DNA from: Aurantimicrobium minutum
Lineage (GTDB): Bacteria > Actinomycetota > Actinomycetes > Actinomycetales > Microbacteriaceae
DNA length: 64,000 nt
Direction: 5' to 3'
Assembly (NCBI RefSeq): GCF_029892845.1
Contig: NZ_JARXVT010000001.1
Span: 186,001-250,000 of the forward strand
Shown here: positions 38,711-61,214 of the stretch, in pieces
How positions within the stretch are numbered: the stretch's first letter is position 1
Layout of the letters: each line of letters starts with the position of its first letter
Notes under the pieces: model-generated
Told to the model about the DNA's origin: nothing
Seen by the model: the letters and a program-made list of their open reading frames with translations, nothing else
The model's database searches: none
Program-made: the position numbers and the translations under genes

Positions 38711-38727
38711 TTCTCATTCAATGAGAA
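38711..38727. promoter_or_regulatory. Operator-like palindrome before the P450 operon (site 2)
   Basis: A perfect inverted repeat, TTCTCAT-TCA-ATGAGAA, lies 69 bases before the P450 start in a 122-base gap. Its inner 15 bases share the shape of the sites at 37836 and 52614. Confidence 0.7.
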
Positions 38728-38795
38728 GATTTTGTATACGCCACTTGATATTCGTTACAAGATGAATTCAAACGTATTCAAGGAGGAATGTGTTT

Positions 38796-40071: not shown

Positions 40072-41145
40072 ATGTCGCTTTACTCTTTCCCGTTTGACAG
40101 CACGGAAACCCCTGAACACGACCGCCTTGGCGGTAAGTGCACCTCGTTGGTCATCATGACTAATGCGGGTATGCCCGTTCCTCCCGGATTTGCCGTGACT
40201 ACGGACGCTTTTGACGCCGTCATGAACGACACCAAGCTGCACGACCAAATCGCAGCTCACCTCAAGGGCCTGGACTACAACAGCCCAGCAGAGCTGGACC
40301 GTCAGGCAGCACTCATTCGTGAACTCATCCTGACCCAGGAAGTTCCTGAAGCAGTGCGCCTCGAAGTTGTTGCCGCTTACAACCGCCTGATGGAGATCTG
40401 CGGCGGAGAAGTACCTGTTGCCGTTCGTTCCTCCGCAACCGCGGAAGACCTCCCTGACGCGAGCTTTGCTGGCCAGCAGGACACTTACCTCTGGATCATT
40501 GGTGAGCACAATGTGATGCAGAAGGTCCGCGAATGCTGGGCTTCTCTCTACACCGCACGTGCCATCAGCTACCGCGAAGCAAACAACATCCCCAGCGAAG
40601 GCCTTTCTATCGCTGTGGCTGTGCAGAAGATGGTCAACTCACGTTCTTCAGGAGTTGCCATGACCATCGACCCCACCACCGGTGACCGCACCAAGATCGT
40701 GATCGACTCCAGCTGGGGCCTCGGCGAAATGGTTGTTTCTGGTGAAGTTACCCCCGACAACTACGTCGTGGACAAGGTCATGCTCTCTGTGGTTCGCCGC
40801 ATTGTTTCTGACAAGCACGAAGAGCTCGTTCCCAACGGCCGTGGCGGCATCGTCCGCCGCGAGGTTGAAGAAGAGCGTCGTAACTCTCCCAGCTTGAGCG
40901 AAGAAGAGATCGTCTCTGTCGCCAAGCTCGCTAAGGCAGCCGACAAGCACTATGGCTGCGTTCAAGACGTCGAATGGGCGATCGATGCCGATCTGCCCGA
41001 TGGCGCAAATGTTCTTCTTCTGCAAAGCCGCCCCGAAACGGTGTGGTCACAGAAGGAGACGCCGGTAGCAAATCTTTCTGGCGGAGCAGGAATCGAGGCC
41101 ATCACGCGCTCGCTTCTGGCTTCGATAGAAAAAAACAAAAAGTAG
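40072..41145 (+). CDS. PEP-synthase-like ATP-grasp subunit of an aryl kinase (CreH/HpeH-type)
   Basis: A 357-residue protein consisting only of the nucleotide-binding domain of PEP synthase / PPDK: LGGKCTSLVIMTNAGMPVPPGF, AVRSSATAEDLPDASFAGQQ, then SRSSGVAMTIDPTTGDRTK and a final LLLQSRPETVW. ATP is bound here and phosphate is passed to a His on the partner (41191-43014). The split layout matches phenylphosphate synthase and the CreH/CreI and HpeH/HpeI kinases of phenolic catabolism. The ATG at 40072 was chosen 28 bases after the P450 stop; a long upstream extension within the P450 gene is a shadow. Confidence 0.9.
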   Translation: MSLYSFPFDSTETPEHDRLGGKCTSLVIMTNAGMPVPPGFAVTTDAFDAVMNDTKLHDQIAAHLKGLDYNSPAELDRQAALIRELILTQEVPEAVRLEVVAAYNRLMEICGGEVPVAVRSSATAEDLPDASFAGQQDTYLWIIGEHNVMQKVRECWASLYTARAISYREANNIPSEGLSIAVAVQKMVNSRSSGVAMTIDPTTGDRTKIVIDSSWGLGEMVVSGEVTPDNYVVDKVMLSVVRRIVSDKHEELVPNGRGGIVRREVEEERRNSPSLSEEEIVSVAKLAKAADKHYGCVQDVEWAIDADLPDGANVLLLQSRPETVWSQKETPVANLSGGAGIEAITRSLLASIEKNKK

Positions 41146-41190
41146 TACTACTTCACCACCCACCTCGAGAAAAGAAGAAAGGTCGTCGCA

Positions 41191-43014: not shown

Positions 43015-43027
43015 GACTCACCACACC

Positions 43028-43756
43028 ATGAAGCGCGTATCCCGTTCCCCCGTCAACCACCTTGGTCGTGACGTCTCCCACAAGATTCCTGTGTGGCAGA
43101 ACGTCCCCGGCCTGGTGGCCATGGGGGAGCGGGATGCTCGCATCTGGGAGCTCGCAACTCCCTACCTGCAAACCCGCGATAACGATGTGCACACCCTGTA
43201 CTCGTTCGCTATTGCGAACCAGTTAGTTACCCGCATCCCTGAGGCTAACGAACACATCGTGCTTCCGGCGATCATTTTGCACGACACCGGTTGGTCCACC
43301 GTGGACGAGCAGATCGCCTTCCAGGCGATTGCTCCTGACCGCGATGGTACCTACACCTGGGCTGTGTACCAGCACGAAAAAGAGGGTGCTCGCATTGCCC
43401 GGGAAATTCTGAGTGAGGTCGGATATGCCCAAGCGGATATTGATGAAATCTGCGAGATCATTGACGGCCACGACACTCGTCTGACGTCTCTGAGCATCAA
43501 TGACTCCTGCGTGAAAGACGCAGACAAGATTTGGCGAGTCTCACCCCACGGCATCGATGTTGCGATGCCACGGTTTGGACTCGACCGGGATGAATCCCTG
43601 CGGATCAATGCCTTCCGCGCCTATGACGACCTATTCACTGATGCGGGTAAAGCCATGTCCTTGGCAATTATTGCCCTGGAGTCCATGGACATCAGCATTC
43701 AGATGAAAGAGATGCAAGAAAGAGGACGTGCCAATGTCACAACAACTGACTGGTAA
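43028..43756 (+). CDS. HD-domain phosphohydrolase, CreD-like (copy 1)
   Basis: A 242-residue HD protein. Metal-ligand candidates are H55 (DVHTLYSF), the H85-D86 pair in IILHDTGW, H116, H148 in DGHDT and D164/D166 in KDADKIWR. A likely role is removal of the phosphate from an oxidised aryl phosphate such as 4-hydroxybenzyl phosphate, as described for CreD. It starts 13 bases after the kinase subunit and overlaps the dehydrogenase gene by 23 bases. A paralogue lies at 46088-46744. Confidence 0.8.
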   Translation: MKRVSRSPVNHLGRDVSHKIPVWQNVPGLVAMGERDARIWELATPYLQTRDNDVHTLYSFAIANQLVTRIPEANEHIVLPAIILHDTGWSTVDEQIAFQAIAPDRDGTYTWAVYQHEKEGARIAREILSEVGYAQADIDEICEIIDGHDTRLTSLSINDSCVKDADKIWRVSPHGIDVAMPRFGLDRDESLRINAFRAYDDLFTDAGKAMSLAIIALESMDISIQMKEMQERGRANVTTTDW

Positions 43757-44483: not shown

Positions 44484-44511
44484 ACCCTCCAGAAAGACAA
44501 GAAGACACATC

Positions 44512-44835: not shown

Positions 44836-44839
44836 TTCC

Positions 44840-46078
44840 ATGTCAGAGCACATACTCATCATTGGTGGCGGCCAGGCAGGAATGCAGATTGCCGTCACGC
44901 TCCGTGAGGAAGGCTTTGACGGCTCCGTCACCATTGTCGGAGAAGAACACCACGGTCCGTATCAGCGCCCGCCCCTCTCTAAGGCATACCTTGCTGGAGA
45001 GGCTGACGCTGAGACTCTGGAGCTGCGTAATCCCCAGTTCTATGTCGACAACAATATTGTCGTCATCCCTTCGGAGAAGGTTGTTTCACTCGCGTGGGGT
45101 GAAAAGCACGGTGTTGCCACGACCGAAACCGGTCGTGAGCTGCCCTTTGACAAGCTCGCACTTGCTACCGGCTCCGACCCCAAGCGGTTGACCTGCGAGG
45201 GTGCAGACCTCGATGGTGTGCTTTACATGCGTGGGCTGGATGACGCAAACGAGTTGAAAGCCCGCTGGGAGAAGATCCACAACATCGTGGTCATCGGTGG
45301 CGGCTTTATTGGTCTTGAAGTTGCTGCTGTAGCTCGCAAATATAACAAGCACGTCACTGTGGTTCACTCGCGCGACCGATTAATGTCTCGTGCTGTAGGT
45401 CCTGTGGTGAGTGAATTCTTCCTCGAAGCCCACATCAAGCGTGGTGCCGAGGTACTTCTTGACTCCAAGGTCACCAAGCTTCACGGTGAGAGCGGCACTG
45501 TCTCTGGAGTTGAACTCGCAGATGGCACCGTCATCCCCGCTGATGCAGTGATGGTTGGCATTGGTGTTTCCCCTCGCGGTGAACTTGCTACCCAGCTAGG
45601 CCTAGAAGTCAGCGATAACGGAGCCATTGTGGTCGACTCTCACGCTCGAACCTCAGACCCTCGTGTTGTTGCCTGCGGTGACGTTGCGTTGCTTCCTCAC
45701 CCGTTGACTGGTGAGAACATGGTCATGCTCGAGTCCGTTCAGAACGCGGTGGACCAAGCAAAGCTTGCAGCAAAGTCATTACTCGGTGGCTCGGAGGAAT
45801 ATCACGCTGTTCCGTGGTTCTGGAGTGACCAGGCAGAGCTGAAGCTCCAGATGGCTGGCCTTTCGCAAGGATTTGACCAGCAGGTTGTCCGCGGAAACCC
45901 TGACGAAGACAAGTTCAGCGTTCTGTATTACAAGAATGGCCGCATCATCGCCGTTGATGCCGTCAACGACGTTCTCGACTATATGGCGGTGCGCCGTGCA
46001 TTGACCGCCGGCCAGAACATCCCTGCCGATTTAGCAGCAGACTCCTCTGTTGCATTGAAGACACTCGTCACTGACTAA
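44840..46078 (+). CDS. NAD(P)H-dependent ferredoxin reductase (CreE-like)
   Basis: A 412-residue FAD-dependent reductase like putidaredoxin reductase: ILIIGGGQAGMQIA (FAD), PYQRPPLSKAYL, ATGSDPK, a second Rossmann IVVIGGGFIGLEVAAVA (NAD) and VACGDVALLPHP. A C-terminal domain follows. It reduces the neighbouring ferredoxin to drive the P450. Operon position between ferredoxin and second HD gene. Confidence 0.95.
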   Translation: MSEHILIIGGGQAGMQIAVTLREEGFDGSVTIVGEEHHGPYQRPPLSKAYLAGEADAETLELRNPQFYVDNNIVVIPSEKVVSLAWGEKHGVATTETGRELPFDKLALATGSDPKRLTCEGADLDGVLYMRGLDDANELKARWEKIHNIVVIGGGFIGLEVAAVARKYNKHVTVVHSRDRLMSRAVGPVVSEFFLEAHIKRGAEVLLDSKVTKLHGESGTVSGVELADGTVIPADAVMVGIGVSPRGELATQLGLEVSDNGAIVVDSHARTSDPRVVACGDVALLPHPLTGENMVMLESVQNAVDQAKLAAKSLLGGSEEYHAVPWFWSDQAELKLQMAGLSQGFDQQVVRGNPDEDKFSVLYYKNGRIIAVDAVNDVLDYMAVRRALTAGQNIPADLAADSSVALKTLVTD

Positions 46079-46087
46079 CGAAGGCGC

Positions 46088-46744
46088 ATGATGGAATTCA
46101 CACACTCCCTGAAGGATGTTCCCACTTTGGGTAACGGGGCACTCCCCACTGGCACCTATGACAGCGTCGACAACATCTGGAAAGCCGTTGAGCCCTACAC
46201 CCGCTCACGCATGAATGACATCCACTTGCCGCTGACACTCCTCTTTGCAGAGTTCTTGCTCGACGTTCACCCGGAGGCTGATCCACAGGTCACCCGCGTT
46301 GCAGCGATGCTGCATGACGCAGGTTGGGCTCGAGTCGATGAGGACAAGATTCTCTCCGAAGGTTTCCGCAGCGAAAACTTTATGACCAGCGATGTTCGTG
46401 TTCAGCACGAAATCTTTGGTTGTGACATTGCCCGTGAAATTCTTCCTGGCTGTGGCTATGACGATGAGTTCATCAAGAAAGTGACCGACATCATTGACGG
46501 TCACGACACTCGTCCCGTCAGCCACAGTATCGAGGACTCGATCATGCGCGACGCAGACCGCCTCTGGCGCTTCAACCCTGTCGGTCTGGGATTCTCGGCT
46601 GAATGGTTCGGTAAGACTCCTCAGCAGATTCGACTCAAGCTGGAACAAGACATCATGCCCGAGATGATTACCCCCACCGGCCGCGCCATGGCCGAAGCCG
46701 AGTTGCAGCACTCCATTCGTGTGCTCTGCCTCGACGTTCTCTAA
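46088..46744 (+). CDS. HD-domain phosphohydrolase, CreD-like (copy 2)
   Basis: A 218-residue paralogue of the HD protein at 43028. Equivalent residues are H46, H76-D77 (AAMLHDAGW), H107 (VQHEIFGCDIAREI), H139-D140 (IDGHDTRPVS) and D155/D157 (MRDADRLWR). The two share layout and motifs but are clearly diverged outside them. Two phosphatases would be sensible if the operon handles two aryl phosphates; this is inference. Confidence 0.8.
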   Translation: MMEFTHSLKDVPTLGNGALPTGTYDSVDNIWKAVEPYTRSRMNDIHLPLTLLFAEFLLDVHPEADPQVTRVAAMLHDAGWARVDEDKILSEGFRSENFMTSDVRVQHEIFGCDIAREILPGCGYDDEFIKKVTDIIDGHDTRPVSHSIEDSIMRDADRLWRFNPVGLGFSAEWFGKTPQQIRLKLEQDIMPEMITPTGRAMAEAELQHSIRVLCLDVL

Positions 46745-46776
46745 AACTTCAGAAACACAATCGAAACGGATTCCCC

Positions 46777-48246: not shown

Positions 48247-49122
48247 TTAGCTGTTGTCAGCCTGTGTAAACAGATCAACCAGTTCTGTCATGCTGTTCAC
48301 GATCAGTTCTGGCTGAACGGATGGGTCTGCATTCTCGGCATCTTCACGTGAGCTTGTGCCGGTAAGAACCAGGCCTGCCAAAGCGCCTGCATTGCGCGCC
48401 ATGGTGGATTCGAGCTTGATGTCGTCACCGATAACCAGGATGTTCTCCTGAGGAGTACCCAAGACACGGCTGACCACATTCATCGAGTGCTGAGAAGGCT
48501 TACCTAGGATCTCGAAGTCCTTCTTGCCTGTGACGAACATGAGGCCAGAGGTAATAAAGCCAGAGACGCCCACGTTCAGGCGGTCAGCAGAAGCAAACAT
48601 AGGCGCATAGCTGGTGCAGTAGAGCTCTGCACCATCACGGATAGCTTCAGCAGCGAGCTGGATCTTGTCCTTGCCGAAGTTGGTGTCCCACCCAATCACC
48701 ACGGCAACTGCTCCGTGCTTGGCACCTCTGATGGCGGCAGGAACATCAACGACGTTCACGCCGCGCTCGCGGAAGTCTTCCAACATGCCTTCAGCGGCAA
48801 AGACAAGGATGGGCTGGTCGCCATACTTTTCCTTCATGACCTCGGCTGCGACAACTGCAGGGGTGAAGACGAGCTCATCTGGAATGTTAAAGCCCATGTC
48901 ACGCAGGTGGTGAGCAATCTCCTTGGGACGCTGTGCTGTTCCGTTGGTGAACACACAATATGCACGGCCAGTGTCTTGGGCGAGCTTGATGGATTCAATG
49001 GCGCCCGGAAGCACACTTCCGCCAGCGCCGCTGGGGCCATCTGAGATGACAAGGCAGCCATCAATGTCGAACATGATGCCCTGGGTTGCCTTGAGGCGGG
49101 GGAGAAGGCTGCTGTTGGTCAT
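48247..49122 (-). CDS. HAD-IIA family phosphatase (candidate HpeD-type aryl phosphatase)
   Basis: A 291-residue HAD hydrolase of the NagD/p-nitrophenylphosphatase subfamily: nucleophile D19 and D21 in MFDIDGCLV, FTNGT (motif II), LGKPSQ (Lys) and VIGDDIKLE (motif IV). This subfamily often acts on aryl or small sugar phosphates. It is the last gene of the carboxylase operon, 15 bases after its neighbour. Removal of a phosphate after carboxylation of a phosphorylated hydroxyphenyl ketone is a good candidate role. General phosphoglycolate phosphatase activity is the main alternative. Confidence 0.82.
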   Translation of the reverse strand: MTNSSLLPRLKATQGIMFDIDGCLVISDGPSGAGGSVLPGAIESIKLAQDTGRAYCVFTNGTAQRPKEIAHHLRDMGFNIPDELVFTPAVVAAEVMKEKYGDQPILVFAAEGMLEDFRERGVNVVDVPAAIRGAKHGAVAVVIGWDTNFGKDKIQLAAEAIRDGAELYCTSYAPMFASADRLNVGVSGFITSGLMFVTGKKDFEILGKPSQHSMNVVSRVLGTPQENILVIGDDIKLESTMARNAGALAGLVLTGTSSREDAENADPSVQPELIVNSMTELVDLFTQADNS

Positions 49123-49137
49123 GAGTATTCCTAGGTG

Positions 49138-50682
49138 TTATCGAGAGAGGGAAACAGTTGCGCCATCGCGCTGGACGGACAGGGATTTCCACGTTGGTAA
49201 CGCATTTGCGGCATCGATGAACTCCTGAACGGAGTTCACAGAACCCGTTCCAGAAGACACACGAGCACCGGGTGACCACGCAGGAGCTGGTGCTGCGTTG
49301 ATGGCAATCTCTGCTTGGTCGTGAGGCATCACGATGCGCAGAAGAAGATCTTCTTCGCTGAGCTTCTTGCCAAACTTACCGGTGTATTCGGTGTGAAGTT
49401 CTTCGAGGGTGCGCTCACGCTGTGCTGCCTTGAGCTCAGCAACGCGAGGGTTATCTGCCACGCGCTGCAAGATCTCAGGGATGATTTCGCCTTCGGGGGT
49501 GCCGAAGTCGCCAATGACAAACTTCACAACTTCGTCAGGGATGCGGCTGTATCGTTCCTGGCCGCTCTTTGCTGCCAAGACGTTCATCAGTGCCTGGCTT
49601 CCCACGAACTGGCTGAACGGGGTCACCATGATGGGATATCCCAAATCTGCACGCACCTGACCGGCTTCTTCAATCACGGCAGGAAGAGCATCGCTCATTC
49701 CGATTTCAGCCAGCTGGCGCTTGAGGGTTCCCATCATGCCGCCAGGAACCTGGTGACTGTGGAAGCTGAGGTCATACTCATTAGGGGTGCCAGGAAGAAG
49801 CTTTTGCTTCTTAGCGAAGTCCCAAAGCAGAGCAGAGCCTTCCGCGGCTGCATCGCGGTCGAGATCCACTTGAATACCGAGGGCATCGAGGTTAGCCAGA
49901 ACATGCTCCAAGCTGGGCTGGGCAGTTCCGTTAGAGAGTGGCCCCATACCGGTGTGAAGAACATCCACGCCGAGCTCGGCTGCCACGAGGTAGAGATGCG
50001 GTGCGGCGCCGGTGGTGCAGTGGCTGTGGAGTTCGAAGGTCTTGGTGCCCAGTGCTGCACGCATTTTCGGAACGAGTTCCTTGGTGCGCTCTGCGGTCAG
50101 CAGGCCACCGGGGTCTTTGAGGTAGACCGAGTCAATGTCAGCGCAGTTCGCGTATGCCGTGGTCGCTGCCAAGAACTTCTCATCGGTGTGTACTGGGCTG
50201 GTTGTGTAAACCACACCGGCAAGCACATCAGTGATGCCCTCCTCTTTTGCCCAGCGAGCAACCTTCATGGTCTGCTCGATGTCATTTCCAGGCTCGGCAA
50301 TCATGATGCGACTGAGGCCATGGCGAGCCATCACACGCAGCGACATTCGATACACCGACTCTTCAGCCTTCTCCCACGACATGAAGCGCATGCCGGTGGT
50401 GATGCAGGACAGGTGAGTGTTGGGGGCAGCTGCACGAACGCGACTAATGCGCTCCCACGGATTTTCACCGTGGAACTTGGTTCCCATCACCAGGTGAGTG
50501 GAGCTGGTGAAGTCCAGGGCGTGCAGACCCATGCGCTCATAGATAGGTGCCATGGCTTCGGCCATGCCGGTGGTGATGCCAGTGGCAGCCCAGAGGCTCT
50601 GGTTGCCGTCTCGAATACTGGTGTCAACGATCTTGACGGGACCCTGGCGACGCTTTTCGCCAGTCAAACTCATCTCAGTCAT
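49138..50682 (-). CDS. Biotin-dependent carboxyltransferase subunit (candidate ketone carboxylase, Hpe-type)
   Basis: A 514-residue protein of the pyruvate carboxylase B / transcarboxylase 5S / oxaloacetate decarboxylase alpha family. Aligned landmarks: IVDTSIRDGNQSLWAAT (metal Asp), SVYLKDPGGLL (the Lys that is carbamylated), ELHSHCTTG (metal His pair) and SHQVPGGMMGTLKRQL. The barrel motif normally WGGATFD, which binds pyruvate, is replaced by FTSSTHLV, so pyruvate is not the expected substrate. The C-terminal biotin domain is absent. It overlaps the biotin carboxylase gene by eight bases. With that and the carrier it forms a three-subunit carboxylase, as in the HpeCBA carboxylase of Rhodococcus. 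Confidence 0.82.
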   Translation of the reverse strand: MTEMSLTGEKRRQGPVKIVDTSIRDGNQSLWAATGITTGMAEAMAPIYERMGLHALDFTSSTHLVMGTKFHGENPWERISRVRAAAPNTHLSCITTGMRFMSWEKAEESVYRMSLRVMARHGLSRIMIAEPGNDIEQTMKVARWAKEEGITDVLAGVVYTTSPVHTDEKFLAATTAYANCADIDSVYLKDPGGLLTAERTKELVPKMRAALGTKTFELHSHCTTGAAPHLYLVAAELGVDVLHTGMGPLSNGTAQPSLEHVLANLDALGIQVDLDRDAAAEGSALLWDFAKKQKLLPGTPNEYDLSFHSHQVPGGMMGTLKRQLAEIGMSDALPAVIEEAGQVRADLGYPIMVTPFSQFVGSQALMNVLAAKSGQERYSRIPDEVVKFVIGDFGTPEGEIIPEILQRVADNPRVAELKAAQRERTLEELHTEYTGKFGKKLSEEDLLLRIVMPHDQAEIAINAAPAPAWSPGARVSSGTGSVNSVQEFIDAANALPTWKSLSVQRDGATVSLSR

Positions 50683-52048
50683 TGTTCGCTGCCTTTCGTT
50701 CTTCCCAAATCGGTCCAAACCAGCTGGTGGGGACTTCTCCGGCAATGAAATCATCGTGGGAGAGTACGTATTCGAGCATGGGGAGTGTTGTTTTGAGCCC
50801 TGCAATCGTCGTGTTTTGGGCTGCGGCAAGTGCGCCTGCGACGGCGGCCTTGCGGTCGTGTGCTCGCACAATCAACTTGGCCATCAGGCTGTCGTAATAG
50901 GGAGGGAAGCTGTAACCAGTCTCCACCTGAGTATCAATACGAATACCAGGACCCTTGGGCCAGGTGACTTCAGTCAAAACACCGGAGTTCGGCATGAAGT
51001 TGTTGTCAGGGTCTTCCGAGTTGATGCGCAGCTCAATCACGCTGACTGGTGGAACGGGGCCCACTGTTGGCAGCTCAGGATCCATGCCTAAAGCCAAACG
51101 AAGTTGAGCAGCAACCAAGTCCACGCCGAATGCTTCTTCGGTCACAGGGTGTTCAACCTGAATGCGGGCGTTGACCTCGAGGAAGACCACGTCTTCACTC
51201 TGGGTGTCGACGAGGAACTCCACGGTGCCTGCACCGCGATACTTCAATGCCTTCACCAAACGGCGTGAAGAGTCATGCAAAATCTTGCGGCGTGCTTCGC
51301 TGAGACCCGGGGCTGGGCATTCTTCAATGAGCTTTTGGTGGCGACGCTGCACAGAGCAGTCGCGGTCGCCGAAGATCCAGGCGTTGCCTTCACCGTCGCC
51401 GAAAACCTGTACTTCCACGTGACGTGCCAGACCGTAGTAGCGCTCGAGATAGAGAGCCCCATTGCCAAAGGCAACCTCTGCTTCTTGTGCGGCCTGCGGG
51501 GCAAGCTCTTCGAGCTCGTCGAGGTTAGTTACCAAGCGAATACCGCGACCGCCACCGCCGTGGATTGCTTTGATGAGCAGAGGGAAGCCGAGTTTCTCCC
51601 CCAGTGCGCGCACTTCGCTGGGGTCATTGATCTCAATACCCTGTGCAACAGGAACATCTGCATCAATGGCAACCAGTCGAGCACTTCCCTTATCTCCAAC
51701 TGCACGCAATGTTTCAGGGCGAGGGCCTGCAAAGGCAATGCCTTCTTCTTCAAGAAGTTCACACAGCTTAGGTTGTTCACTCAAGAAGCCATAGCCCGGG
51801 TGAACAACGGCTGCGCCGGCGTTCACGGCGGCCTGCGCCACTTGCTCTGGGCGCAGGTAAGAGAGGTTGGCCTGAGCGGCACCAATCACGATGACCCGGT
51901 CAGCTGCCTTGGCGGCAGGGGAGTTGGCGTCAGCAACGCTGGCGGCAAGAACAGGAGATGCGCCAATGCGGCGAGCAGCCGCGATGATGCGCATCGCAAT
52001 CTCGCCGCGGTTTGCGACGAGGACGACGGGCTTATCTGTGGTGGTCAT
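50675..52048 (-). CDS. Biotin carboxylase subunit
   Basis: A 457-residue ATP-grasp enzyme that carboxylates biotin on the carrier protein with ATP and bicarbonate. The N-terminus is VLVANRGEIAMRII, the glycine loop is HGGGGRGIR, then ERDCSVQRRHQKLIEE (as DRDCSVQRRHQKLIEECP) and FLEVNARIQVEHPVTE. It is encoded between the carrier and transferase genes. It could be the housekeeping enzyme, but the operon context and separate transferase suggest a dedicated one. Confidence 0.92.
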   Translation of the reverse strand: MTTTDKPVVLVANRGEIAMRIIAAARRIGASPVLAASVADANSPAAKAADRVIVIGAAQANLSYLRPEQVAQAAVNAGAAVVHPGYGFLSEQPKLCELLEEEGIAFAGPRPETLRAVGDKGSARLVAIDADVPVAQGIEINDPSEVRALGEKLGFPLLIKAIHGGGGRGIRLVTNLDELEELAPQAAQEAEVAFGNGALYLERYYGLARHVEVQVFGDGEGNAWIFGDRDCSVQRRHQKLIEECPAPGLSEARRKILHDSSRRLVKALKYRGAGTVEFLVDTQSEDVVFLEVNARIQVEHPVTEEAFGVDLVAAQLRLALGMDPELPTVGPVPPVSVIELRINSEDPDNNFMPNSGVLTEVTWPKGPGIRIDTQVETGYSFPPYYDSLMAKLIVRAHDRKAAVAGALAAAQNTTIAGLKTTLPMLEYVLSHDDFIAGEVPTSWFGPIWEERKAANND

Positions 52049-52056
52049 GGCCGTGA

Positions 52057-52524
52057 TTAGTTCAGTGTGATCTGAACGAGGGGCTGACCGAACTCCACAG
52101 CGTGGGAGTCTTCAACCAAGAACTCACCGAGTACTCCTGCCTTACCTGCCACGACGGGGTTCATCAGCTTCATAATCTCGATGATGCCGATGGTGGTCTC
52201 TGCGGTGACAGTGTCACCGGGCTTCACGAATTCGTCAGCACCAGGTGAAGGGCGGCGGTAGAAGACACCAATCATGGGTGCATCAACGGTGTCACCAGCA
52301 GGCGCAGCTGGCGCAGCGGTAACCACAACTGCAGGTGTGGCCGGAGCGGCAACAACCGGAGCTGCAACTGGTGCAACCGCAGTAGCGGGGGCCTCGGTGA
52401 AATTCTCATTCTTTGAGAGGCGAACTGAGACGCTCCCAAACTGAACGCTGGCGTTCTCGTAGTCGCTGTTGTTGAGCTGTTCAACCAGATCAAGTAGTTC
52501 TTGCCAGCTAGGAGTTTCAGACAT
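52057..52524 (-). CDS. Biotin carboxyl carrier protein
   Basis: A 155-residue carrier. A helical N-terminal part is followed by a Pro/Ala linker, then the 80-residue biotinyl domain with EIMKLMNPVVAGKAG, where the Lys carries biotin (Ile in place of the more usual Ala or Val). The layout is that of AccB. It is the first gene of the minus-strand operon, facing an IclR gene across an operator-like palindrome. Confidence 0.9.
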   Translation of the reverse strand: MSETPSWQELLDLVEQLNNSDYENASVQFGSVSVRLSKNENFTEAPATAVAPVAAPVVAAPATPAVVVTAAPAAPAGDTVDAPMIGVFYRRPSPGADEFVKPGDTVTAETTIGIIEIMKLMNPVVAGKAGVLGEFLVEDSHAVEFGQPLVQITLN

Positions 52525-52611
52525 GAGGACCTCGTATTCGGTGGTGTCGACGATGACAACGTTGTAAACCTGTCCTCAGTTTCCCCGGTATTACAGTGCA
52601 GTGCAACTAAT

Positions 52612-52630
52612 TTTTTCATTCAGTGAAAAA
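52612..52630. promoter_or_regulatory. Operator-like palindrome in the divergent carboxylase/IclR promoter (site 3)
   Basis: TTTTTCA-TTCAG-TGAAAAA, a perfect 7-bp inverted repeat, sits between the carrier gene (minus) and the IclR gene (plus). Its core resembles TTCTCATTCAATGAGAA at 38711. Confidence 0.72.
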
Positions 52631-52675
52631 CTATTACTGACATTTCTTACTGTTCTGACTTAGAGTGAAACCACG

Positions 52676-53461
52676 ATGTCCACCACGAGCTCAACTCCGC
52701 CCACTCCCTCGAAGTCCGTCACGGCGAGGGCGTTGAGTGTGCTTGGCGCTTTTAGTGCAGTGACGCCCAGGCTGAACCTGAGTCAGATCTCCCGAGCAAC
52801 GGGTTTACCCGTGGCAACAGTTTTCCGTTTGGCGGGTGAGCTCGAAGACGGTGGCTTCCTGCAGCGTGACGGTTCTAACTTTTACAGCTTGGGTATCAAG
52901 CTGTGGGAGATGGGTTTACTCACTCCTGTGCACGGTCGTCTGCGCGAAATAGCAATGCCGTTCCTTCTGAACCTGCAGTACCGAACCAGAGAAACGGTGC
53001 AGCTTGCCGTGCTGGATGGTTTAGACGCTGTCTATGTGGAGAAGCTCACGAGCGAAGTTAGTGTTCCCATTCAAAGCAGGATTGGCTCGCGTATTCCTCT
53101 GCATGCCACCGCTGTGGGACAAGTTCTTTTGGCATATTCAGATTCAGGTCTCATCGATCAGGTCGTAGATTCACCCTTGACCAAATACACCGAGGAGACC
53201 ATCACCTCGAAGCGGACACTTCTTCGTGAGCTTTCCAACGTTCGTGACCGCGGTTATGCCTACTCGGCAAGTGAATATCTCCCGGGAGCTGTTGCAATCG
53301 CGGCACCGGTCTTTGTCGGCGGCAAGATTGAAGCCGCCTGCGGTGTCGTCAACTACGACAACCGAGCAGATATCGAGGAGTGCTACTCCTCTCTTCAGGA
53401 AGCGTGCACGGGTTTTGCTGCGCGTTTAGAAGAACTCAAGAAGTCAGGCCAGAGCTACTAA
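52676..53461 (+). CDS. IclR-family regulator of the carboxylase/ligase operons
   Basis: A 261-residue IclR protein. The HTH is TARALSVLGAFSAVTPRLNL...ISRATGLPVATVFRLAGELE, and the ligand domain has SRIPLHATAVGQVLLAY. It is first in the plus-strand operon with the ligase, hydrolase and lyase genes and divergent from the carboxylase. No clear ribosome binding site precedes the ATG. It probably controls both operons through the palindrome between them. Confidence 0.92.
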   Translation: MSTTSSTPPTPSKSVTARALSVLGAFSAVTPRLNLSQISRATGLPVATVFRLAGELEDGGFLQRDGSNFYSLGIKLWEMGLLTPVHGRLREIAMPFLLNLQYRTRETVQLAVLDGLDAVYVEKLTSEVSVPIQSRIGSRIPLHATAVGQVLLAYSDSGLIDQVVDSPLTKYTEETITSKRTLLRELSNVRDRGYAYSASEYLPGAVAIAAPVFVGGKIEAACGVVNYDNRADIEECYSSLQEACTGFAARLEELKKSGQSY

Positions 53462-53489
53462 CGCTCTGGAGTTACTGGAAGGAACGTCA

Positions 53490-55472
53490 ATGACGACAAC
53501 ACTGGGAACTGAACTTCGCCCTGCCCTGCCCCGTGATCTGTGGAACACCACTGAGATGGGTCGTTTCCTTGAACAGGTCGAGGCTCAACATGGCGTTCAC
53601 TTCGACACCTACGACCAGGCATGGGCTTGGTCTGTGGCGAACCTTGAAGACTTCTGGCAGTCCATCTGGGACCACTTCGAGATTATTTCCCACGCTCCGC
53701 ACACGGCAGTGTTGGGCAAGAAGACAATGCCGGGAGCCGAATGGTTCCCTGGTGCTCGGCTGAACTTTGCCGAGCACATCCACCGCGCACTGGTGCAGCA
53801 CGCAGACGCCCCCATCTTGATCAACCGCAGCCAAACGACGGGCTCTTCCGAGTGGACGGGCCAACGTCTACTGGATGAGATTGCTGCGCAGCGAACTGGT
53901 TTGATCGCACAAGGAATCGGCGAAGGTGACCGCGTCGTGGGCTATTTGCCCAATATTCCCCAGACAGTGGCACTGTATTTCGCAACAGCATCTCTGGGAG
54001 CTATCTGGTGTTCTGTTCCCCCTGAGATGGGGCCACAGAGCGTGCTCGACCGTATTGAGCAGCTCGAACCCAGCCTGCTTATAGCCATTGATGGGTATAA
54101 GTGGGGCGCAAAGGAGGTTTCTCGCACAGAGGAGCTCTCACGTATTCGCACCGCCCTTCCCGCGATGAAGGTCGTACTGCTGCCATATCTGGATCAGGAT
54201 TGTGAGATTCCTGCAGGCGTCACCTCCTATGCAGAGTTCACGTCGAAAACGTCCGCGCTCGAGTTCGCTGCTGTTGCATTTGATCACCCTCTCGTGATCC
54301 TCTTCTCCTCTGGCACCACCGGTAAGCCCAAAGCGATCGTGCACTGCCACGGAGGACTACTTCTGGAGCACTACAAAGACATTGCTCTCCAGTTCGATAT
54401 TTCTAACCGTGACCGCACGTTCTGGTATTCCACCACTGGCTGGATGGTGTGGACACTCAGCGTCTCCTCCCTTCTCGTGGGTGCCGCGATGGTGATCATG
54501 GATGGCGATCCTGGCTGGCCGGCTCTTGATGGGGAATGGTCACAGTGGGCCGTGCTCGCAGAAACCAAGTCCACCTACCTCACCACTGGTTCTGCCTACC
54601 TGGCTGTGTGTGCGCACTCAGGTCTAACTCCCGGTAAGACATGGGACCTTTCTCGCCTTCGTGAGATTCAATGTTCTGGTTCGCCTCTGGCAGCAGATGT
54701 TGCCGGCTGGGTCTATGCCGAGGTGAAATCTGACCTCGAACTCGCCCCGGCTTCTGGCGGCACAGATATCTGCAGTGGATTTGTGTGTGGTTCGCCCCTT
54801 TCTCCCGTCAATGCAGGCGAAATGGCCGTGCGCCCTCTGGGCGCAGCGGTCTATAGCTGGGGACCTGACGGTCAAGAAGTATCTGGCGAACCCGGTGAAC
54901 TTGTTTGTGTGGCACCGCTGCCGTCGATGCCTGCCTTCTTCTGGGGAGATAAAGACTTTGAGCGATATTCCGCCAGCTACTTCGATACCTGGCCTGGAGT
55001 GTGGCGTCACGGCGACTGGTTAATCCACACTGAGCGCAACACCTGGGCGATTACAGGCCGCAGTGATGCCACCCTCAATCGTGGTGGTGTTCGTTTGGGA
55101 ACAGCTGAGTTCTATGCGATTCTCGATCCGAGACCTGAGCTTAAAGACACTCTCGTGCTCCACTTCGAAGATCCAGATGGTGGCATGGGCGTCCTTGCAC
55201 TTTTAGCCGTTGCTGCAGGAGACCTGGACACCTCCGCGGCCGAGAAGGAACTTAAGGCCTTCATCCGCACTGAGCTCTCTCCACGTCACGTTCCCGATGT
55301 CATCGTGTGGGTTCCCAGCGTTCCTCGAACAGCCACGGGCAAGCGTCTCGAAATTCCTCTGAAACGCCTTGTTCAGGGCATCGACACCGGCAACACCATT
55401 GATCGAGGTGTCCTGGTTCACCCTGAGGATCTCGATGGCATTGTTGCCGCACTCAAAGACGTAGTGAAGTAG
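53490..55472 (+). CDS. Acetoacetyl-CoA-synthetase-like acyl-CoA ligase
   Basis: A 660-residue ANL-family ligase of the AacS subfamily. The P-loop is ILFSSGTTGKPKAIVHCHGG, the core GGTDICSGFVCG and WRHGDWL are present, and the catalytic Lys is in ATGKRLEIPLK. Ordinary AacS activates acetoacetate. In this neighbourhood it could activate a beta-keto acid formed by carboxylation of an aromatic ketone, for example 4-hydroxybenzoylacetate; this is inference. GAAGGA lies seven bases upstream. Confidence 0.88.
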   Translation: MTTTLGTELRPALPRDLWNTTEMGRFLEQVEAQHGVHFDTYDQAWAWSVANLEDFWQSIWDHFEIISHAPHTAVLGKKTMPGAEWFPGARLNFAEHIHRALVQHADAPILINRSQTTGSSEWTGQRLLDEIAAQRTGLIAQGIGEGDRVVGYLPNIPQTVALYFATASLGAIWCSVPPEMGPQSVLDRIEQLEPSLLIAIDGYKWGAKEVSRTEELSRIRTALPAMKVVLLPYLDQDCEIPAGVTSYAEFTSKTSALEFAAVAFDHPLVILFSSGTTGKPKAIVHCHGGLLLEHYKDIALQFDISNRDRTFWYSTTGWMVWTLSVSSLLVGAAMVIMDGDPGWPALDGEWSQWAVLAETKSTYLTTGSAYLAVCAHSGLTPGKTWDLSRLREIQCSGSPLAADVAGWVYAEVKSDLELAPASGGTDICSGFVCGSPLSPVNAGEMAVRPLGAAVYSWGPDGQEVSGEPGELVCVAPLPSMPAFFWGDKDFERYSASYFDTWPGVWRHGDWLIHTERNTWAITGRSDATLNRGGVRLGTAEFYAILDPRPELKDTLVLHFEDPDGGMGVLALLAVAAGDLDTSAAEKELKAFIRTELSPRHVPDVIVWVPSVPRTATGKRLEIPLKRLVQGIDTGNTIDRGVLVHPEDLDGIVAALKDVVK

Positions 55473-55496
55473 TTCCGCTCTGGCTAAGGTGAAGCT

Positions 55497-56279
55497 ATGA
55501 CTGTTCCTGCCCTCTTTACTGTTTCCGAGAAGCCTGTTGCCGAGCTCACCGGCGCAGACAATGTTTTGTTCCTCGGCAACGCCCTCGGCACAGACACCCA
55601 CCTCTGGGATTTAGCGCTGCCCACACTGGCAGCGAAGTACTCCGTGGTGCGCTTCGATATGCCAGGACACGGACAGTCTCCAGTTCCTTCCGATTCCTAC
55701 ACGCTTGAAGAGATCGCAGATGCACTTGTTGCCAAGGCAGATGAGCTTGGGGTGGAGAAGTTTGACTATGCGGGCGTCTCGGTTTCCGGGGCAATCGCAC
55801 TCGAATTGGCACACAAATACCCCGAGCGCATCAAGCACTCGATTGTGGTGTGTTCTGCTGCCTATATGGGTGGACCAGAAGGCTGGGCAGAGCGAATTGC
55901 TCAGGTGAGCAACTCAGGAACCGCTTCACTGGTTCCGATGCTTCCACCTCGCTGGTTCTCAGATGACTTCATCGCTAAGTCGCCAGAGGCAGTGAAGAAG
56001 GTTCTGAACATGGTGGTCGCCACAGATGACGCCAGCTATATCAAGACCTGTGAAGCACTCGGAAACTTCGATGCTCGCCCTTTCTTGACAGGCATTTCCG
56101 TGCCCGTGTTAGCTATCTCCGGTGAGATTGACCCGGGCGCACCCGTCTCAGCAGGAGCTTTCATTGCTGAACAAGTTCCCGGTGCGAGTTTGGTTGTGAT
56201 TCCGGGCGCATCTCACATCGCTGTCGTGGAATCTCCCCTGGAAATGGCGAAGAACATTACTGACTTCCTCTCGAAGTAG
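55497..56279 (+). CDS. Alpha/beta hydrolase, 3-oxoadipate enol-lactonase-like
   Basis: A 260-residue hydrolase resembling PcaD: FLGNALGTDTHLWDLALP, RFDMPGHGQSP, and a nucleophile elbow GVSVSG where Ser is within G-x-S-x-S rather than the usual G-x-S-x-G. The acid is in ISGEIDPGAPVS and the His in GASHIAVVESP. Ring-cleavage lactonase is one possibility; hydrolysis of a beta-keto acid or ester in the operon's own pathway is another. It follows the ligase by 24 bases. Confidence 0.75.
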   Translation: MTVPALFTVSEKPVAELTGADNVLFLGNALGTDTHLWDLALPTLAAKYSVVRFDMPGHGQSPVPSDSYTLEEIADALVAKADELGVEKFDYAGVSVSGAIALELAHKYPERIKHSIVVCSAAYMGGPEGWAERIAQVSNSGTASLVPMLPPRWFSDDFIAKSPEAVKKVLNMVVATDDASYIKTCEALGNFDARPFLTGISVPVLAISGEIDPGAPVSAGAFIAEQVPGASLVVIPGASHIAVVESPLEMAKNITDFLSK

Positions 56280-56288
56280 GGTTGAGGA

Positions 56289-57104
56289 ATGGTTTCCGCA
56301 GAAATTTCCCGCTCCTGGATGCTCGTCAACGGTTCACATTCCGAAGAGTTCGATGCAGCAGCTGCCACCAAGGCAGATCAGATCGTCCTCGACATCGAAG
56401 ATGCCGTTGACCCCTCGCAGAAGGCTGCTTCTCGCGATGAGGTTGCAAAGTGGTTGGAAACCAATGAAGCGTGGGTTCGCATCAACGATCGCTCCTCCGA
56501 CTTCTGGTCAGATGACATTGACCAGCTGCGTGATATCCCAGGTCTTCTCGGTGTGATGCTCGCTAAGACCGAAGACGGCTCACACGTCACAGAAACCTTT
56601 GACCGCTTAGGTGGCAAGACTCGCGTGCTTGCACTCGTGGAGTCGGCTCTGGGTATTGAGGAAGCAAGAGAGATTGCCTGCGCTCGCGGCGCATTCCGCC
56701 TCGCTTTCGGCAGCGGCGACTACCGCCGCGACACTGGCACCAGCGTGGAAGATATCGCCATGGCATACCCACGCTCACGCCTCGTTGTTGCAAGCCGTAT
56801 TGGAAACCTGCCCGGGCCAATTGACGGACCAACTGTGGGAACTAGCTACGGCATCCTGCGTGAGAAGTCTGAGCACGCTGTCGCACTTGGCATGACGGGC
56901 AAGCTCTGCTTGAACCACGACCAGATCCCCGTCATCAACGAAGCCATTAGCCCCACACAGTCTGATGTTGCCTGGGCGCGGACCTTCTTGGCTGACTTCG
57001 AAGCACGCGGACGCGTGGTTCGTGACGGAAGTGACCTGCCTCGTTTGGGCCGTGCAGAGAAAATCGAGAAGTTGGCTGTTGCCTTCGGCATCAACCCTTC
57101 CTAG
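56289..57104 (+). CDS. CitE / HpcH-HpaI-like aldolase (CoA-ester lyase family)
   Basis: A 271-residue TIM-barrel protein. RSWMLVNGSHSEEFDAAAATKADQIVLDIEDAVDP starts the CitE-like pattern, followed by VRINDR, ALVESALGIEEAREI (metal Glu) and RLAFGSGDYRRDTG (metal Asp). Family members cleave C-C bonds of CoA esters or keto acids. It is the last gene of the IclR-ligase operon, ten bases after the hydrolase. A C-C cleavage of the carboxylated ketone is plausible. Confidence 0.82.
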   Translation: MVSAEISRSWMLVNGSHSEEFDAAAATKADQIVLDIEDAVDPSQKAASRDEVAKWLETNEAWVRINDRSSDFWSDDIDQLRDIPGLLGVMLAKTEDGSHVTETFDRLGGKTRVLALVESALGIEEAREIACARGAFRLAFGSGDYRRDTGTSVEDIAMAYPRSRLVVASRIGNLPGPIDGPTVGTSYGILREKSEHAVALGMTGKLCLNHDQIPVINEAISPTQSDVAWARTFLADFEARGRVVRDGSDLPRLGRAEKIEKLAVAFGINPS

Positions 57105-59073: not shown

Positions 59074-59955
59074 ATGAGCTATGAATACGGTCTCGACGTC
59101 GAGAACCTCGTTGCCCTCGATATGCACGTCCACATCGAGGTTGACTCGCACGGTCACACGTCTCTCCCGCAGAAGCTCATCGAAGCAGCAACGGCCTACT
59201 TCCGCTCCGAGCCAGCACGTCCCACGCTGGACGAGGTCGCTGACTACTACCGAGAACGCAAGATGGCCGCTGTTGTCTTTACGGTGGATGCACAGACTGC
59301 TTTGGGTCACAACCCCATTGACAGCTTCGAAATCGCAGCAGGCGCAGCCAAGAACAATGACGTGCTCATTCCCTTTGGTTCAGTAGACCCTCTCCAGCCA
59401 AATAAGGCCGTGGAAACCGCTAAGAAGCTCATTGGTGACGCAGGGGTCAAGGGCTTCAAGTTCCACCCCACTGTGCAGAACTTTGCGCCCAATGACGAGT
59501 CTGTCTTTCCGATCTATGAAGTACTCCAAGAAGCAGGAGTCCCTGCTCTCTTTCACACCGGCCAGACAGGTATCGGAGCCGGAACCCCAGGTGGTTCAGG
59601 CATGGTTATTGGGCTGTCTAACCCCCTACTGCTCGATGAAGTTGCCGCAAAGTTTCCTGAACTCCAGATCATCATGGCTCACCCTTCCGTGCCGTGGCAG
59701 GACGAAGCAATTGCCGTTGCCACTCACAAGGCCAACACCTGGATAGACCTTTCTGGATGGTCACCCAAGTACTTCCCCGAGGCTCTCGTTCGTCAGGCAA
59801 ACTCGTTGCTCCGGAACAAGGTTCTCTTCGGATCTGACTACCCTCTGCTCACCCCAGATCGCTGGATGAGTGATTTTGAGAATGCGCCATTCAAGGATGA
59901 AGTTCGTCCCTTGATTATGCGTGAAAATGCCCTGCGTTTATTGGGCTTGAGCTAA
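59074..59955 (+). CDS. Amidohydrolase family protein, possible 4-hydroxyphenyl-beta-ketoacyl-CoA hydrolase
   Basis: A 293-residue amidohydrolase_2 protein. The metal motif is DMHVHIEVD, followed by GFKFHPTVQNFAPND, LFHTGQTGIG, MAHPSVPWQ and GSDYPLLTPDRW (metal Asp). Overall it resembles enzymes described as 4-hydroxyphenyl-beta-ketoacyl-CoA hydrolases from p-hydroxycinnamate catabolism in Rhodococcus, which release 4-hydroxybenzoate. That fits the ligase upstream and pobA downstream. Other family members are decarboxylases and lactonases (LigI, LigJ), which remain possible. AGAGGA lies ten bases before the ATG. Confidence 0.8.
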   Translation: MSYEYGLDVENLVALDMHVHIEVDSHGHTSLPQKLIEAATAYFRSEPARPTLDEVADYYRERKMAAVVFTVDAQTALGHNPIDSFEIAAGAAKNNDVLIPFGSVDPLQPNKAVETAKKLIGDAGVKGFKFHPTVQNFAPNDESVFPIYEVLQEAGVPALFHTGQTGIGAGTPGGSGMVIGLSNPLLLDEVAAKFPELQIIMAHPSVPWQDEAIAVATHKANTWIDLSGWSPKYFPEALVRQANSLLRNKVLFGSDYPLLTPDRWMSDFENAPFKDEVRPLIMRENALRLLGLS

Positions 59956-60020: not shown

Positions 60021-61214
60021 TTAGCGCCAGTCGTCTGCGCTGTAGTCCCAACCCACATAGCCTTCGGCAATGTAGGTCTGGCCTGCCTCAGACTCAGTGA
60101 ACGAGTAAAGGTCAGCAACCTGACGCTTCTTGTCGAACTCGGTAGCATCGGGTGCGATGTGAAGCATGGTGGTCATCATGTAGGAGTAGTTGGTGGCCTT
60201 CCAGATGCGCTTGAGAGCGTCTTCCTGGTAGGTGTCCAAGAACTTCTCGGAACCAGAGCGGTAGTACTCGCGCAGTGCGCGGTTGAGCCACAGAACATCG
60301 CTAAATGCGAGGTTGAGGCCCTTAGCTCCGGTGGGGGGAACAGTGTGTGCTGCGTCGCCCATGAGGAAGACTTTGTTCTTGCGCAGGCTGTCGTGGACGT
60401 AGCTGCGGAACTTGAGAACGTCCTTACGGAAGATGGGGCCGCGCTTGAGCTCAGCGTTGGAAACGCCTGCCTGGAGCTTGTCCCAGATCTGCTCGTCAGT
60501 AACAGCGTTGACATCCATGTTGGGATCGCACTGGAAGTACATGCGCTGGATGTTCTCATCACGGGTGGAGATGAGCACGAAGCCTTCTTCAGAGCGGCTG
60601 TAAATGAGTTCTTCGGAGCTTGGTGGTGCTTCCACGAGGATGCCGTACCAACCGAAGGGGTATTCACGGGCCATACCGCTGAAGCGGTCACCGGTGACGT
60701 ATTCACGAGCAATGCTCATTGAACCGTCAGCACCAATAACGAAGTCTGCGGAGATTTCGAATGCTTCGCCGTTCACTGTTTTGCCCACGATCATGGGGCC
60801 ATTGGGTCCATCCACGACCTTGTCAGCGAGGTGCTCGAACAAGGGAGTCACACCAGCAGCAACACGTGCCTTGATCTGGTCCTTCAGCACTTCGTGCTGG
60901 GGGTAGAGGTAGACACCCTTACCGGTGAGCTTGGGGAAGTCGAAGCGGTGTGCGTGACCATCAAAGTGGAACTCAACGCCGTCGTGACGCATGGTCTCGA
61001 CATAGTCGCGAGAAACAACGCCGGTTTCGACCAACACCTCAACTGCGGGGGATTCCAGGATGCCGGCCTTGACGGTTCCTTCGATGTCTTCGCGGCTGCG
61101 GCCGTCGATCACGACAGAGTCGATGCCTGCGCGCTGGAGGAGGTGAGCGAGCTGCAAGCCTGCGGGGCCTGCGCCCAAAATGCCGACCTGAGTGCGGATT
61201 GTTGTGGTCATCAT
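60021..61214 (-). CDS. pobA: 4-hydroxybenzoate 3-monooxygenase
   Basis: A 397-residue flavoprotein hydroxylase converting 4-hydroxybenzoate to protocatechuate with NAD(P)H and O2. It has GILGAGPAGLQLAHLLQRAGI (FAD), the conserved DGVEFHFDGHAHRFDFP substrate region, VIGADGSMSIAR (DG motif) and FLMGDAAHTVPPTGAKGLN (second FAD motif). It is the junction of both proposed upstream branches. The gene is divergent from an IclR regulator with a 106-base gap. It begins with two adjacent ATGs. Confidence 0.95.
   Translation of the reverse strand: MMTTTIRTQVGILGAGPAGLQLAHLLQRAGIDSVVIDGRSREDIEGTVKAGILESPAVEVLVETGVVSRDYVETMRHDGVEFHFDGHAHRFDFPKLTGKGVYLYPQHEVLKDQIKARVAAGVTPLFEHLADKVVDGPNGPMIVGKTVNGEAFEISADFVIGADGSMSIAREYVTGDRFSGMAREYPFGWYGILVEAPPSSEELIYSRSEEGFVLISTRDENIQRMYFQCDPNMDVNAVTDEQIWDKLQAGVSNAELKRGPIFRKDVLKFRSYVHDSLRKNKVFLMGDAAHTVPPTGAKGLNLAFSDVLWLNRALREYYRSGSEKFLDTYQEDALKRIWKATNYSYMMTTMLHIAPDATEFDKKRQVADLYSFTESEAGQTYIAEGYVGWDYSADDWR

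What the first reader, a model, noticed from the sequence alone, without database searches (positions are those of the whole stretch)
48247..57104. Hpe-like carboxylase module beside the Cre-like operon
A three-subunit biotin carboxylase operon with a HAD phosphatase, facing an operon of IclR, AacS-like ligase, hydrolase and CitE-like lyase, has the parts expected for ketone degradation by phosphorylation, carboxylation, dephosphorylation and C-C cleavage. That scheme is known as the hydroxyphenylethanone (Hpe) pathway in Rhodococcus, giving 4-hydroxybenzoate or vanillate. The kinase needed is not in these operons but is a few kilobases away.
Basis: partly seen in the sequence, partly recalled or inferred. 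Interest (0 to 1): 0.8.

Follow-up and report, generated by a model that had tools for sequence, protein, structure and literature searches.

The report
Ketone-carboxylating pathway sharing the cresol kinase
A tiny freshwater bacterium carries a nearly complete set of genes for breaking down lignin-type hydroxyphenyl ketones by adding phosphate and then CO2, but it lacks that pathway's own kinase and probably borrows the one kinase of the neighbouring cresol pathway, an economy that has arisen at least three times.

Summary
The window is from an Aurantimicrobium (1.76 Mb genome). The carboxylase at 48247-52524 belongs to the HpeB clade: its carboxyltransferase is 64% identical to that of Actinomadura macra, whose hpe genes convert acetovanillone when moved into Rhodococcus. 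It is far from pyruvate/oxaloacetate enzymes and lacks their pyruvate-binding residues. The AacS-like ligase matches HpeE. PobA and a protocatechuate 4,5-cleavage operon follow, so 4-hydroxyacetophenone to central metabolites is encoded.

Two corrections. The alpha/beta-hydrolase and CitE-like genes are genus backbone, present also in congeners without the carboxylase. And no HpeHI kinase was found in the genome: the only such kinase is CreHI of the cresol operon. Relatives show a series: own HpeHI; HpeH without HpeI; neither. Complete loss occurred independently in Aurantimicrobium, Microbacterium sp. BR1 (carboxylase under a cre-type operator) and Klenkia soli (carboxylase and cre kinase in one gene row).

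Best explanation: an Hpe-type pathway for 4-hydroxyphenyl ketones fed by a kinase shared with the cresol pathway. Kinase sharing is inferred, not assayed. New variant of a known kind.

The parts
48247..49122 (-). HpeD-like HAD-IIA phosphatase
   Evidence: Pfam PF13344/PF13242; 52% to the A. macra homologue in the same position; absent from the hpe- congener compared
49138..50682 (-). HpeB-like carboxyltransferase
   Evidence: PF00682 HMGL-like + PF02436 PYC_OADA; 64% to A. macra HpeB; HpeB clade in tree; pyruvate-binding residues replaced
50675..52048 (-). HpeA-like biotin carboxylase
   Evidence: PF00289, PF02786, PF02785; 74% to A. macra HpeA
52057..52524 (-). HpeC-like biotin carboxyl carrier protein
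   Evidence: PF00364, TIGR00531 over cut-off
52612..52630 (.). putative operator of the hpe regulator, TTTTTCATTCAGTGAAAAA
   Evidence: exact match once in window, expected 0.03 with 3 mismatches allowed; same motif upstream of the hpe operon across the HpeB clade
52676..53461 (+). IclR-type regulator of the hpe module (PcaR/PobR-like)
   Evidence: PF09339/PF01614; 58% to the IclR beside A. macra hpe
53490..55472 (+). HpeE-like acyl-CoA ligase of the acetoacetate-CoA ligase family
   Evidence: NF002937 748 bits, TIGR01217 644 bits, both over cut-off; 41% to A. macra ligase; in 3/3 hpe+ and 0/5 hpe- genomes of the genus
59074..59955 (+). HpeF-like beta-ketoacyl-CoA hydrolase (Amidohydro_2); ORF opens at 58966
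   Evidence: PF04909; 54-60% to A. macra/Rhodococcus HpeF; in 3/3 hpe+ and 0/5 hpe- genomes of the genus
40072..41145 (+). CreI-like ATP-grasp component of the two-component phenol kinase (shared)
   Evidence: PF01326; best PDB match 9GOJ = HpeI (entry named); only such gene in the genome
41191..43014 (+). CreH-like swivel/substrate component of the kinase (shared)
   Evidence: PF00391; catalytic motif TDIGGMMSH; in CreH clade; only such gene in the genome
37903..38673 (+). IclR-type regulator of the cre operon
38711..38727 (.). putative cre operator TTCTCATTCAATGAGAA
   Evidence: exact; conserved before cre P450 in close relatives
38790..40043 (+). CreJ-like cytochrome P450
   Evidence: best PDB matches 5XJN/7CCF/5GWE, 540 bits against 234 for the next (identity of these entries as CreJ is from memory)
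43028..43756 (+). HD-domain phosphohydrolase of the cre operon
   Evidence: PF01966
43734..44483 (+). SDR alcohol dehydrogenase of the cre operon
   Evidence: PF13561
44509..44835 (+). 2Fe-2S ferredoxin for the P450
   Evidence: TIGR02007, below cut-off
44840..46078 (+). ferredoxin reductase for the P450
46088..46744 (+). second HD-domain phosphohydrolase of the cre operon
   Evidence: PF01966
46777..48243 (+). aldehyde dehydrogenase, end of cre operon
60021..61214 (-). PobA, 4-hydroxybenzoate 3-monooxygenase
   Evidence: NF006091 448 bits over cut-off

Best explanation
This is an Hpe-type catabolic module for 4-hydroxyphenyl methyl ketones (first of all 4-hydroxyacetophenone) that has lost its own kinase and uses the kinase of the adjoining 4-cresol (Cre) operon. 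Inferred steps: CreHI phosphorylates the phenol; the three-subunit biotin carboxylase adds CO2 to the methyl of 4-phosphoacetophenone; the HAD phosphatase removes the phosphate; the AacS-type ligase makes 4-hydroxybenzoylacetyl-CoA; the HpeF homologue at 59074-59955 cleaves it to 4-hydroxybenzoate and acetyl-CoA; PobA and the protocatechuate 4,5-cleavage operon just past the window finish the job. Shown here: gene identity, clade membership, genomic co-occurrence, a single kinase in the genome, operators. Inferred: the reactions in this organism, and that CreHI accepts the ketone.
For: Carboxyltransferase 64-65%, biotin carboxylase 74%, phosphatase 52%, regulator 58-62%, HpeF 54-60% identical to the A. 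macra and Rhodococcus hpe clusters; A. macra's pathway works in RHA1 (PMC13101465). Carboxyltransferase in the HpeB clade, 100/99 support. Ligands of pyruvate in pyruvate carboxylase (Asp, Arg, Tyr) are Val, Thr, Trp in the window and the Asp and Arg are lost in 85/85 Hpe-type sequences, while catalytic Thr, Lys and His are kept. Module genes appear and vanish together in the genus: carboxyltransferase, ligase and HpeF in the same 3 of 8 genomes. One H and one I kinase gene in each of those 3 genomes, of Cre type. Same state in Microbacterium BR1 and Klenkia soli, and one common origin of these kinase-less lineages is rejected (p-AU 7e-41, 9e-5). In Microbacterium BR1 the carboxylase operon carries the cre-type operator, 2 sites found, 0 expected; in Klenkia the carboxylase and kinase genes lie in one row. 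HpeHI itself turns over cresol at about a quarter of its rate on 4-hydroxyacetophenone (PMC12167813 Table 3), so one kinase of this family can serve both.
Against: No biochemical test. CreHI activity on 4-hydroxyacetophenone was not found in the papers held. No sign of convergent change in the shared CreH proteins (0 shared-only columns). Genomes are drafts (the window's is 99.96% complete, 12 contigs). An unrelated kinase family could do the step. The ligase is only 41% identical to A. macra's and could have another beta-keto acid as substrate.
Confidence: 0.78

Rival explanations
1. Integrated 4-ethylphenol route: the phosphate put on by CreHI stays on through benzylic oxidation by the CreJ-like P450 and alcohol oxidation by the SDR, so that 4-phosphoacetophenone is made inside the cre pathway and passed straight to the carboxylase; no second kinase is ever needed.
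For: Cre operon and carboxylase adjoin in all three kinase-less lineages, in one gene row in Klenkia and under one operator type in Microbacterium BR1. P450 is the closest relative of 5XJN/7CCF/5GWE, which from memory are CreJ structures studied with phosphorylated ethylphenols.
Against: The SDR and P450 are equally present in cre operons without hpe, so they are explained by cresol alone. Plain kinase sharing explains the same neighbourhoods. No paper held describes this route.
Confidence: 0.25
2. Pyruvate carboxylase, oxaloacetate decarboxylase or acyl-CoA carboxylase of ordinary metabolism.
For: Generic Pfam and NCBIfam hits name pyruvate carboxylase subunit B and acetyl-CoA carboxylase subunits.
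Against: All such hits are below curated cut-offs for the carboxyltransferase and biotin carboxylase; the tree separates OAD/PC-type enzymes with support 100; pyruvate ligands lost; the carboxyltransferase co-occurs with HpeE and HpeF and is absent from 5 of 8 congeners, which speaks against a housekeeping role.
Confidence: 0.03
3. The whole set named by the reader, including the alpha/beta-hydrolase and CitE-like lyase, forms the pathway, with CitE doing the C-C cleavage.
For: The two genes directly follow the ligase on the same strand.
Against: ABH-CitE sit beside the prepilin peptidase gene in hpe-less congeners, CitE at 93-97% identity, and no CitE was found in the hpe loci of other genera. 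HpeF, the known cleavage enzyme, co-occurs perfectly.
Confidence: 0.06
4. An unrelated or single-component kinase elsewhere in the genome phosphorylates the ketone, and CreHI serves cresol only.
For: N. aromaticivorans uses a single-component kinase, MarK (PMC13101465).
Against: A search with the ATP-grasp component finds one gene only in this genome, while the same search does find longer single-chain dikinases in other genomes; this excludes only relatives of this family.
Confidence: 0.1

Closest known systems
Hpe pathway of Rhodococcus rhodochrous GD02 and Actinomadura macra (hpeHICBADEF; PMC9618137, PMC13101465)
   Same: Carboxylase triad, HAD phosphatase, AacS-family ligase and amidohydrolase-type hydrolase are homologous and co-occurring; IclR neighbour and operator-like palindrome; product 4-hydroxybenzoate feeds PobA.
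   Different: No HpeHI found in the genome; hpe genes split over two strands, HpeF 3.6 kb away behind backbone genes; lower pathway is protocatechuate 4,5-cleavage, not beta-ketoadipate; no VanA.
Cre (4-cresol) pathway of Corynebacterium glutamicum
   Same: IclR, P450 with ferredoxin and reductase, CreHI kinase, HD phosphohydrolases, SDR, aldehyde dehydrogenase in one gene row (assignments by homology; pathway from PMC12167813 and memory).
   Different: Here it stands beside, and probably lends its kinase to, an hpe module.
Xcc carboxylase of Aromatoleum aromaticum EbN1 (4-ethylphenol/4-hydroxyacetophenone, anaerobic)
   Same: Same three-subunit type (HpeCBA is 45-51% identical to it, PMC9618137).
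   Different: Sequence not available here, so not placed in the tree; anaerobic context.
Acv/Vce pathway of Sphingobium SYK-6 and MarK pathway of Novosphingobium
   Same: Phosphorylation, carboxylation, dephosphorylation logic.
   Different: Own kinases (AcvAB, MarK); in SYK-6 the last steps are encoded elsewhere and use VceA and VceB.

Membership tests
Hpe pathway | HpeCBA carboxylase clade | tested here: met
   64% to A. macra HpeB, clade support 100/99
Hpe pathway | HpeD HAD phosphatase in the carboxylase operon | tested here: met
   52% to A. macra, same operon position
Hpe pathway | HpeE ligase and HpeF hydrolase | tested here: met
   41% and 54-60%; both co-occur with the carboxylase, 3/3 against 0/5
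Hpe pathway | dedicated two-component kinase HpeHI | tested here: not met
   the only H and I in the genome are of the Cre type; hence filed as a kinase-less variant, not as a canonical hpe cluster
Hpe pathway | carboxylation of 4-phosphoacetophenone, not of the free ketone | not testable with these tools
   needs an enzyme assay
Cre pathway | CreHI kinase pair with P450, ferredoxin, reductase, phosphohydrolase and dehydrogenases in one gene row | tested here: met
Pyruvate carboxylase / oxaloacetate decarboxylase | pyruvate-binding Asp/Arg/Tyr in the carboxyltransferase and clade membership | tested here: not met
   replaced by Val/Thr/Trp; outside the clade; residue roles from memory of the R. 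etli enzyme
Xcc carboxylase of EbN1 | clade membership with XccC | not tested
   the EbN1 sequence did not appear among the 80 loci returned

The most novel reading that the evidence does not exclude
One phosphate carries the substrate through two pathways: 4-ethylphenol is phosphorylated by CreHI, oxidised at the benzylic carbon by the CreJ-like P450 and a dehydrogenase while still phosphorylated, and the resulting 4-phosphoacetophenone enters the carboxylase directly, giving an aerobic counterpart of the anaerobic 4-ethylphenol route of Aromatoleum.
Probability: 0.25. Interest if true: 0.7.

Novelty: new variant of a known kind. Interest (0 to 1): 0.55.

Why it matters
The Hpe pathway was reported as rare and with its own kinase, which its discoverers suggest plays an important role in setting the pathway's specificity (PMC12167813). 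Here a streamlined freshwater bacterium and at least two other actinobacterial lineages have dropped that kinase and kept the rest beside a cresol operon, with relatives showing the intermediate state (HpeH kept, HpeI lost). That predicts kinases able to serve two pathways, an ATP-grasp subunit shared between two substrate subunits, and possibly a direct 4-ethylphenol route. All three can be tested with a few purified proteins. It also extends lignin-ketone catabolism to tiny lake bacteria and offers a compact gene set for engineering.

Tried and rejected
Pyruvate/oxaloacetate/acyl-CoA carboxylase identity: rejected by tree and residues. CitE-like lyase and alpha/beta-hydrolase as pathway enzymes: rejected by their presence in hpe-less congeners. 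Protocatechuate 3,4-dioxygenase: none in the genome; a LigB-type 4,5-enzyme was found instead. Vanillate O-demethylase: none. Base composition as a sign of transfer: no anomaly. Convergent residues in the shared CreH proteins: none. Literature on CreJ and phosphorylated ethylphenols was not found in the held library; the MarK paper is not held. Two separate losses of HpeI in the small-genome genera: only marginal (p-AU 0.044), so not claimed.
Full report
WHAT IS THERE. The window is G000:C1:186001-250000 of a 1.76 Mb, 99.96% complete genome. Close matches in named genomes (99% and 96% identical carboxyltransferases) are Aurantimicrobium, a genus of Microbacteriaceae. The carboxyltransferase starts at 50682, overlapping the biotin carboxylase gene by 8 bp.

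IDENTITY OF THE CARBOXYLASE. The described Hpe pathway of Rhodococcus rhodochrous GD02 consists of kinase HpeHI, carboxylase HpeCBA, phosphatase HpeD, ligase HpeE (closest characterised relative: AcsA2 of Sinorhizobium) and hydrolase HpeF (CouO-like) (PMC9618137). Against the Actinomadura macra hpe cluster, whose genes convert acetovanillone when placed in RHA1 (PMC13101465), the window proteins are 64% (carboxyltransferase), 74% (biotin carboxylase), 48% (carrier), 52% (phosphatase), 58% (IclR), 41% (ligase) and 54% (HpeF) identical. In trees of 100 and 35 carboxyltransferases the window falls in the clade of the A. macra and Rhodococcus proteins with 100/99 support, far from oxaloacetate-decarboxylase-type enzymes. 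The residues that bind pyruvate in pyruvate carboxylase (Asp590, Arg621, Tyr628 of the R. etli enzyme; roles and numbering from memory) align with Val, Thr and Trp in the window; the Asp and Arg are lost in all 85 Hpe-type sequences, while the metal-binding Asp and two His, the carbamylated Lys and the catalytic Thr are kept in all 85 (alignment to 5KS8). Arg99, Arg125 and Arg322 are invariant in Hpe-type enzymes and absent from the others: candidate phosphate ligands, an inference.

CORRECTION 1: HpeF AND THE CitE-LIKE GENE. The HpeF homologue is at 59074-59955 (Amidohydro_2; ORF; start). Across eight genomes of the genus the carboxyltransferase, the ligase and HpeF are present in the same three (G000, G398, G402) and absent from the same five. 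The alpha/beta-hydrolase and the CitE-like gene behave otherwise: hpe-less congeners carry them (CitE 93-97% identical) between the prepilin-peptidase gene and the cre operon. They are backbone, and the module lies against them.

THE ISLAND. PobA is at 61214-60021 (448 bits, over cut-off). Just past the window end come LigK, 4-oxalomesaconate tautomerase, two amidohydrolases, LigB and a LigC-like dehydrogenase. No intradiol dioxygenase and no VanA were found. 4-Hydroxyacetophenone to 4-hydroxybenzoate to protocatechuate to 4,5-cleavage is therefore encoded; acetovanillone through VanAB is not. In most hpe-less congeners the cre operon ends directly before PobA. The cre genes of the window are only 59-76% identical to those of an hpe-less congener, while most backbone genes are 94-95%, and its CreH groups with other genera: the cre+hpe block probably came in as one piece.

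CORRECTION 2: THE KINASE. Searches of 24 genomes with CreI and CreH and 10 more with CreH give a series. Rubrobacter-like genomes and Alpinimonas: HpeH and HpeI beside the carboxylase. Two small-genome genera (g283, g249; several drafts of g249 are incomplete): HpeH beside the carboxylase but no HpeI there, and one I gene in the genome, CreI. Aurantimicrobium: one H and one I, both of the cre operon. Window H lies in a CreH clade of 21 rows (support 100) and has Ser before the catalytic His as CreH does, while HpeH of the A. macra clade has Cys (motif from PMC12167813). The same state occurs in Microbacterium sp. BR1 and Klenkia soli, whose genomes each give one H, of Cre type. One origin of the kinase-less lineages is rejected (p-AU 7e-41 with Klenkia, 9e-5 within Microbacteriaceae). 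In Klenkia the order is carrier, carboxylase, carboxyltransferase, phosphatase, ligase, HpeF, CreI, CreH, SDR, ferredoxin, reductase, aldehyde dehydrogenase on one strand.

OPERATORS. A palindrome TTTTTCAYTSARTGAAAAA stands before the hpe operon in the window (52612-52630, exact; 0.03 matches expected with 3 mismatches) and across much of the HpeB clade, including clusters with HpeHI. The cre operon has TTCTCA-N5-TGAGAA (38711-38727). In Microbacterium BR1 the carboxylase operon carries the cre-type palindrome: exactly two copies in the locus, one before each operon, none expected. That ties the carboxylase to the cre kinase in an independent lineage. Binding of IclR proteins to these sites is inferred.

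MECHANISM. Shown: gene identities, clades, co-occurrence, single kinase, conserved operators, purifying selection on all module genes (dN/dS 0.03-0.13). Inferred: CreHI phosphorylates 4-hydroxyacetophenone; the rest proceeds as in GD02. Plausibility: HpeHI turns over cresol at 0.18 against 0.69 U/mg for 4-hydroxyacetophenone (PMC12167813 Table 3), so the family is not strict. A further possibility is that the phosphate is put on 4-ethylphenol and kept through P450 oxidation to 4-phosphoacetophenone; the neighbourhoods fit, but plain sharing explains them too.

VERDICT. Real, mostly as read, with two corrections. The pathway kind is known; the kinase-less, kinase-sharing form was not found described in the papers held, which do not cover most subscription journals.

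Noticed in passing
L161:1868-7746 (about 2 kb before to 6 kb after the window end in genome terms; window end is L161:2001): A protocatechuate 4,5-cleavage operon (LigK, oxalomesaconate tautomerase, two amidohydrolases, LigB, LigC-like) follows at the window end.
   Followed up: yes
37903-48243: The cre operon of hpe+ Aurantimicrobium is a foreign-looking allele: 59-76% identical to an hpe-less congener's cre genes while most flanking backbone genes are 94-95%.
   Followed up: partly
L112, L118, L126, L109; L122, L148: Hpe-like clusters in Thermomicrobium-type and some proteobacterial genomes have carrier, carboxyltransferase and phosphatase but no biotin carboxylase detected beside them; L112, L118 and L126 also lack a detectable HpeI.
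   Followed up: no
L110, L111, L114-L117, L120, L121, L123-L125, L128, L130, L131, L133: A 15-row clade of Burkholderiales clusters with the carboxylase, often with phosphatase and AacS-like ligase, has no dikinase motif in the loci checked (up to 10 kb each side); UPF0261 genes follow in two of them.
   Followed up: partly
L061:18056-18814 and equivalents in L065, L067, L070: An SDR dehydrogenase directly follows the hpe phosphatase in related small-genome genera but is missing from the window; possibly a 1-(4-hydroxyphenyl)ethanol dehydrogenase.
   Followed up: no
37834-37852: A degenerate hpe-like palindrome (3 mismatches) before the cre IclR gene.
   Followed up: no
55497-56279: The backbone alpha/beta-hydrolase evolves fast (70-71% between congeners) beside a 93-94% conserved CitE-like gene; function unknown.
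   Followed up: no
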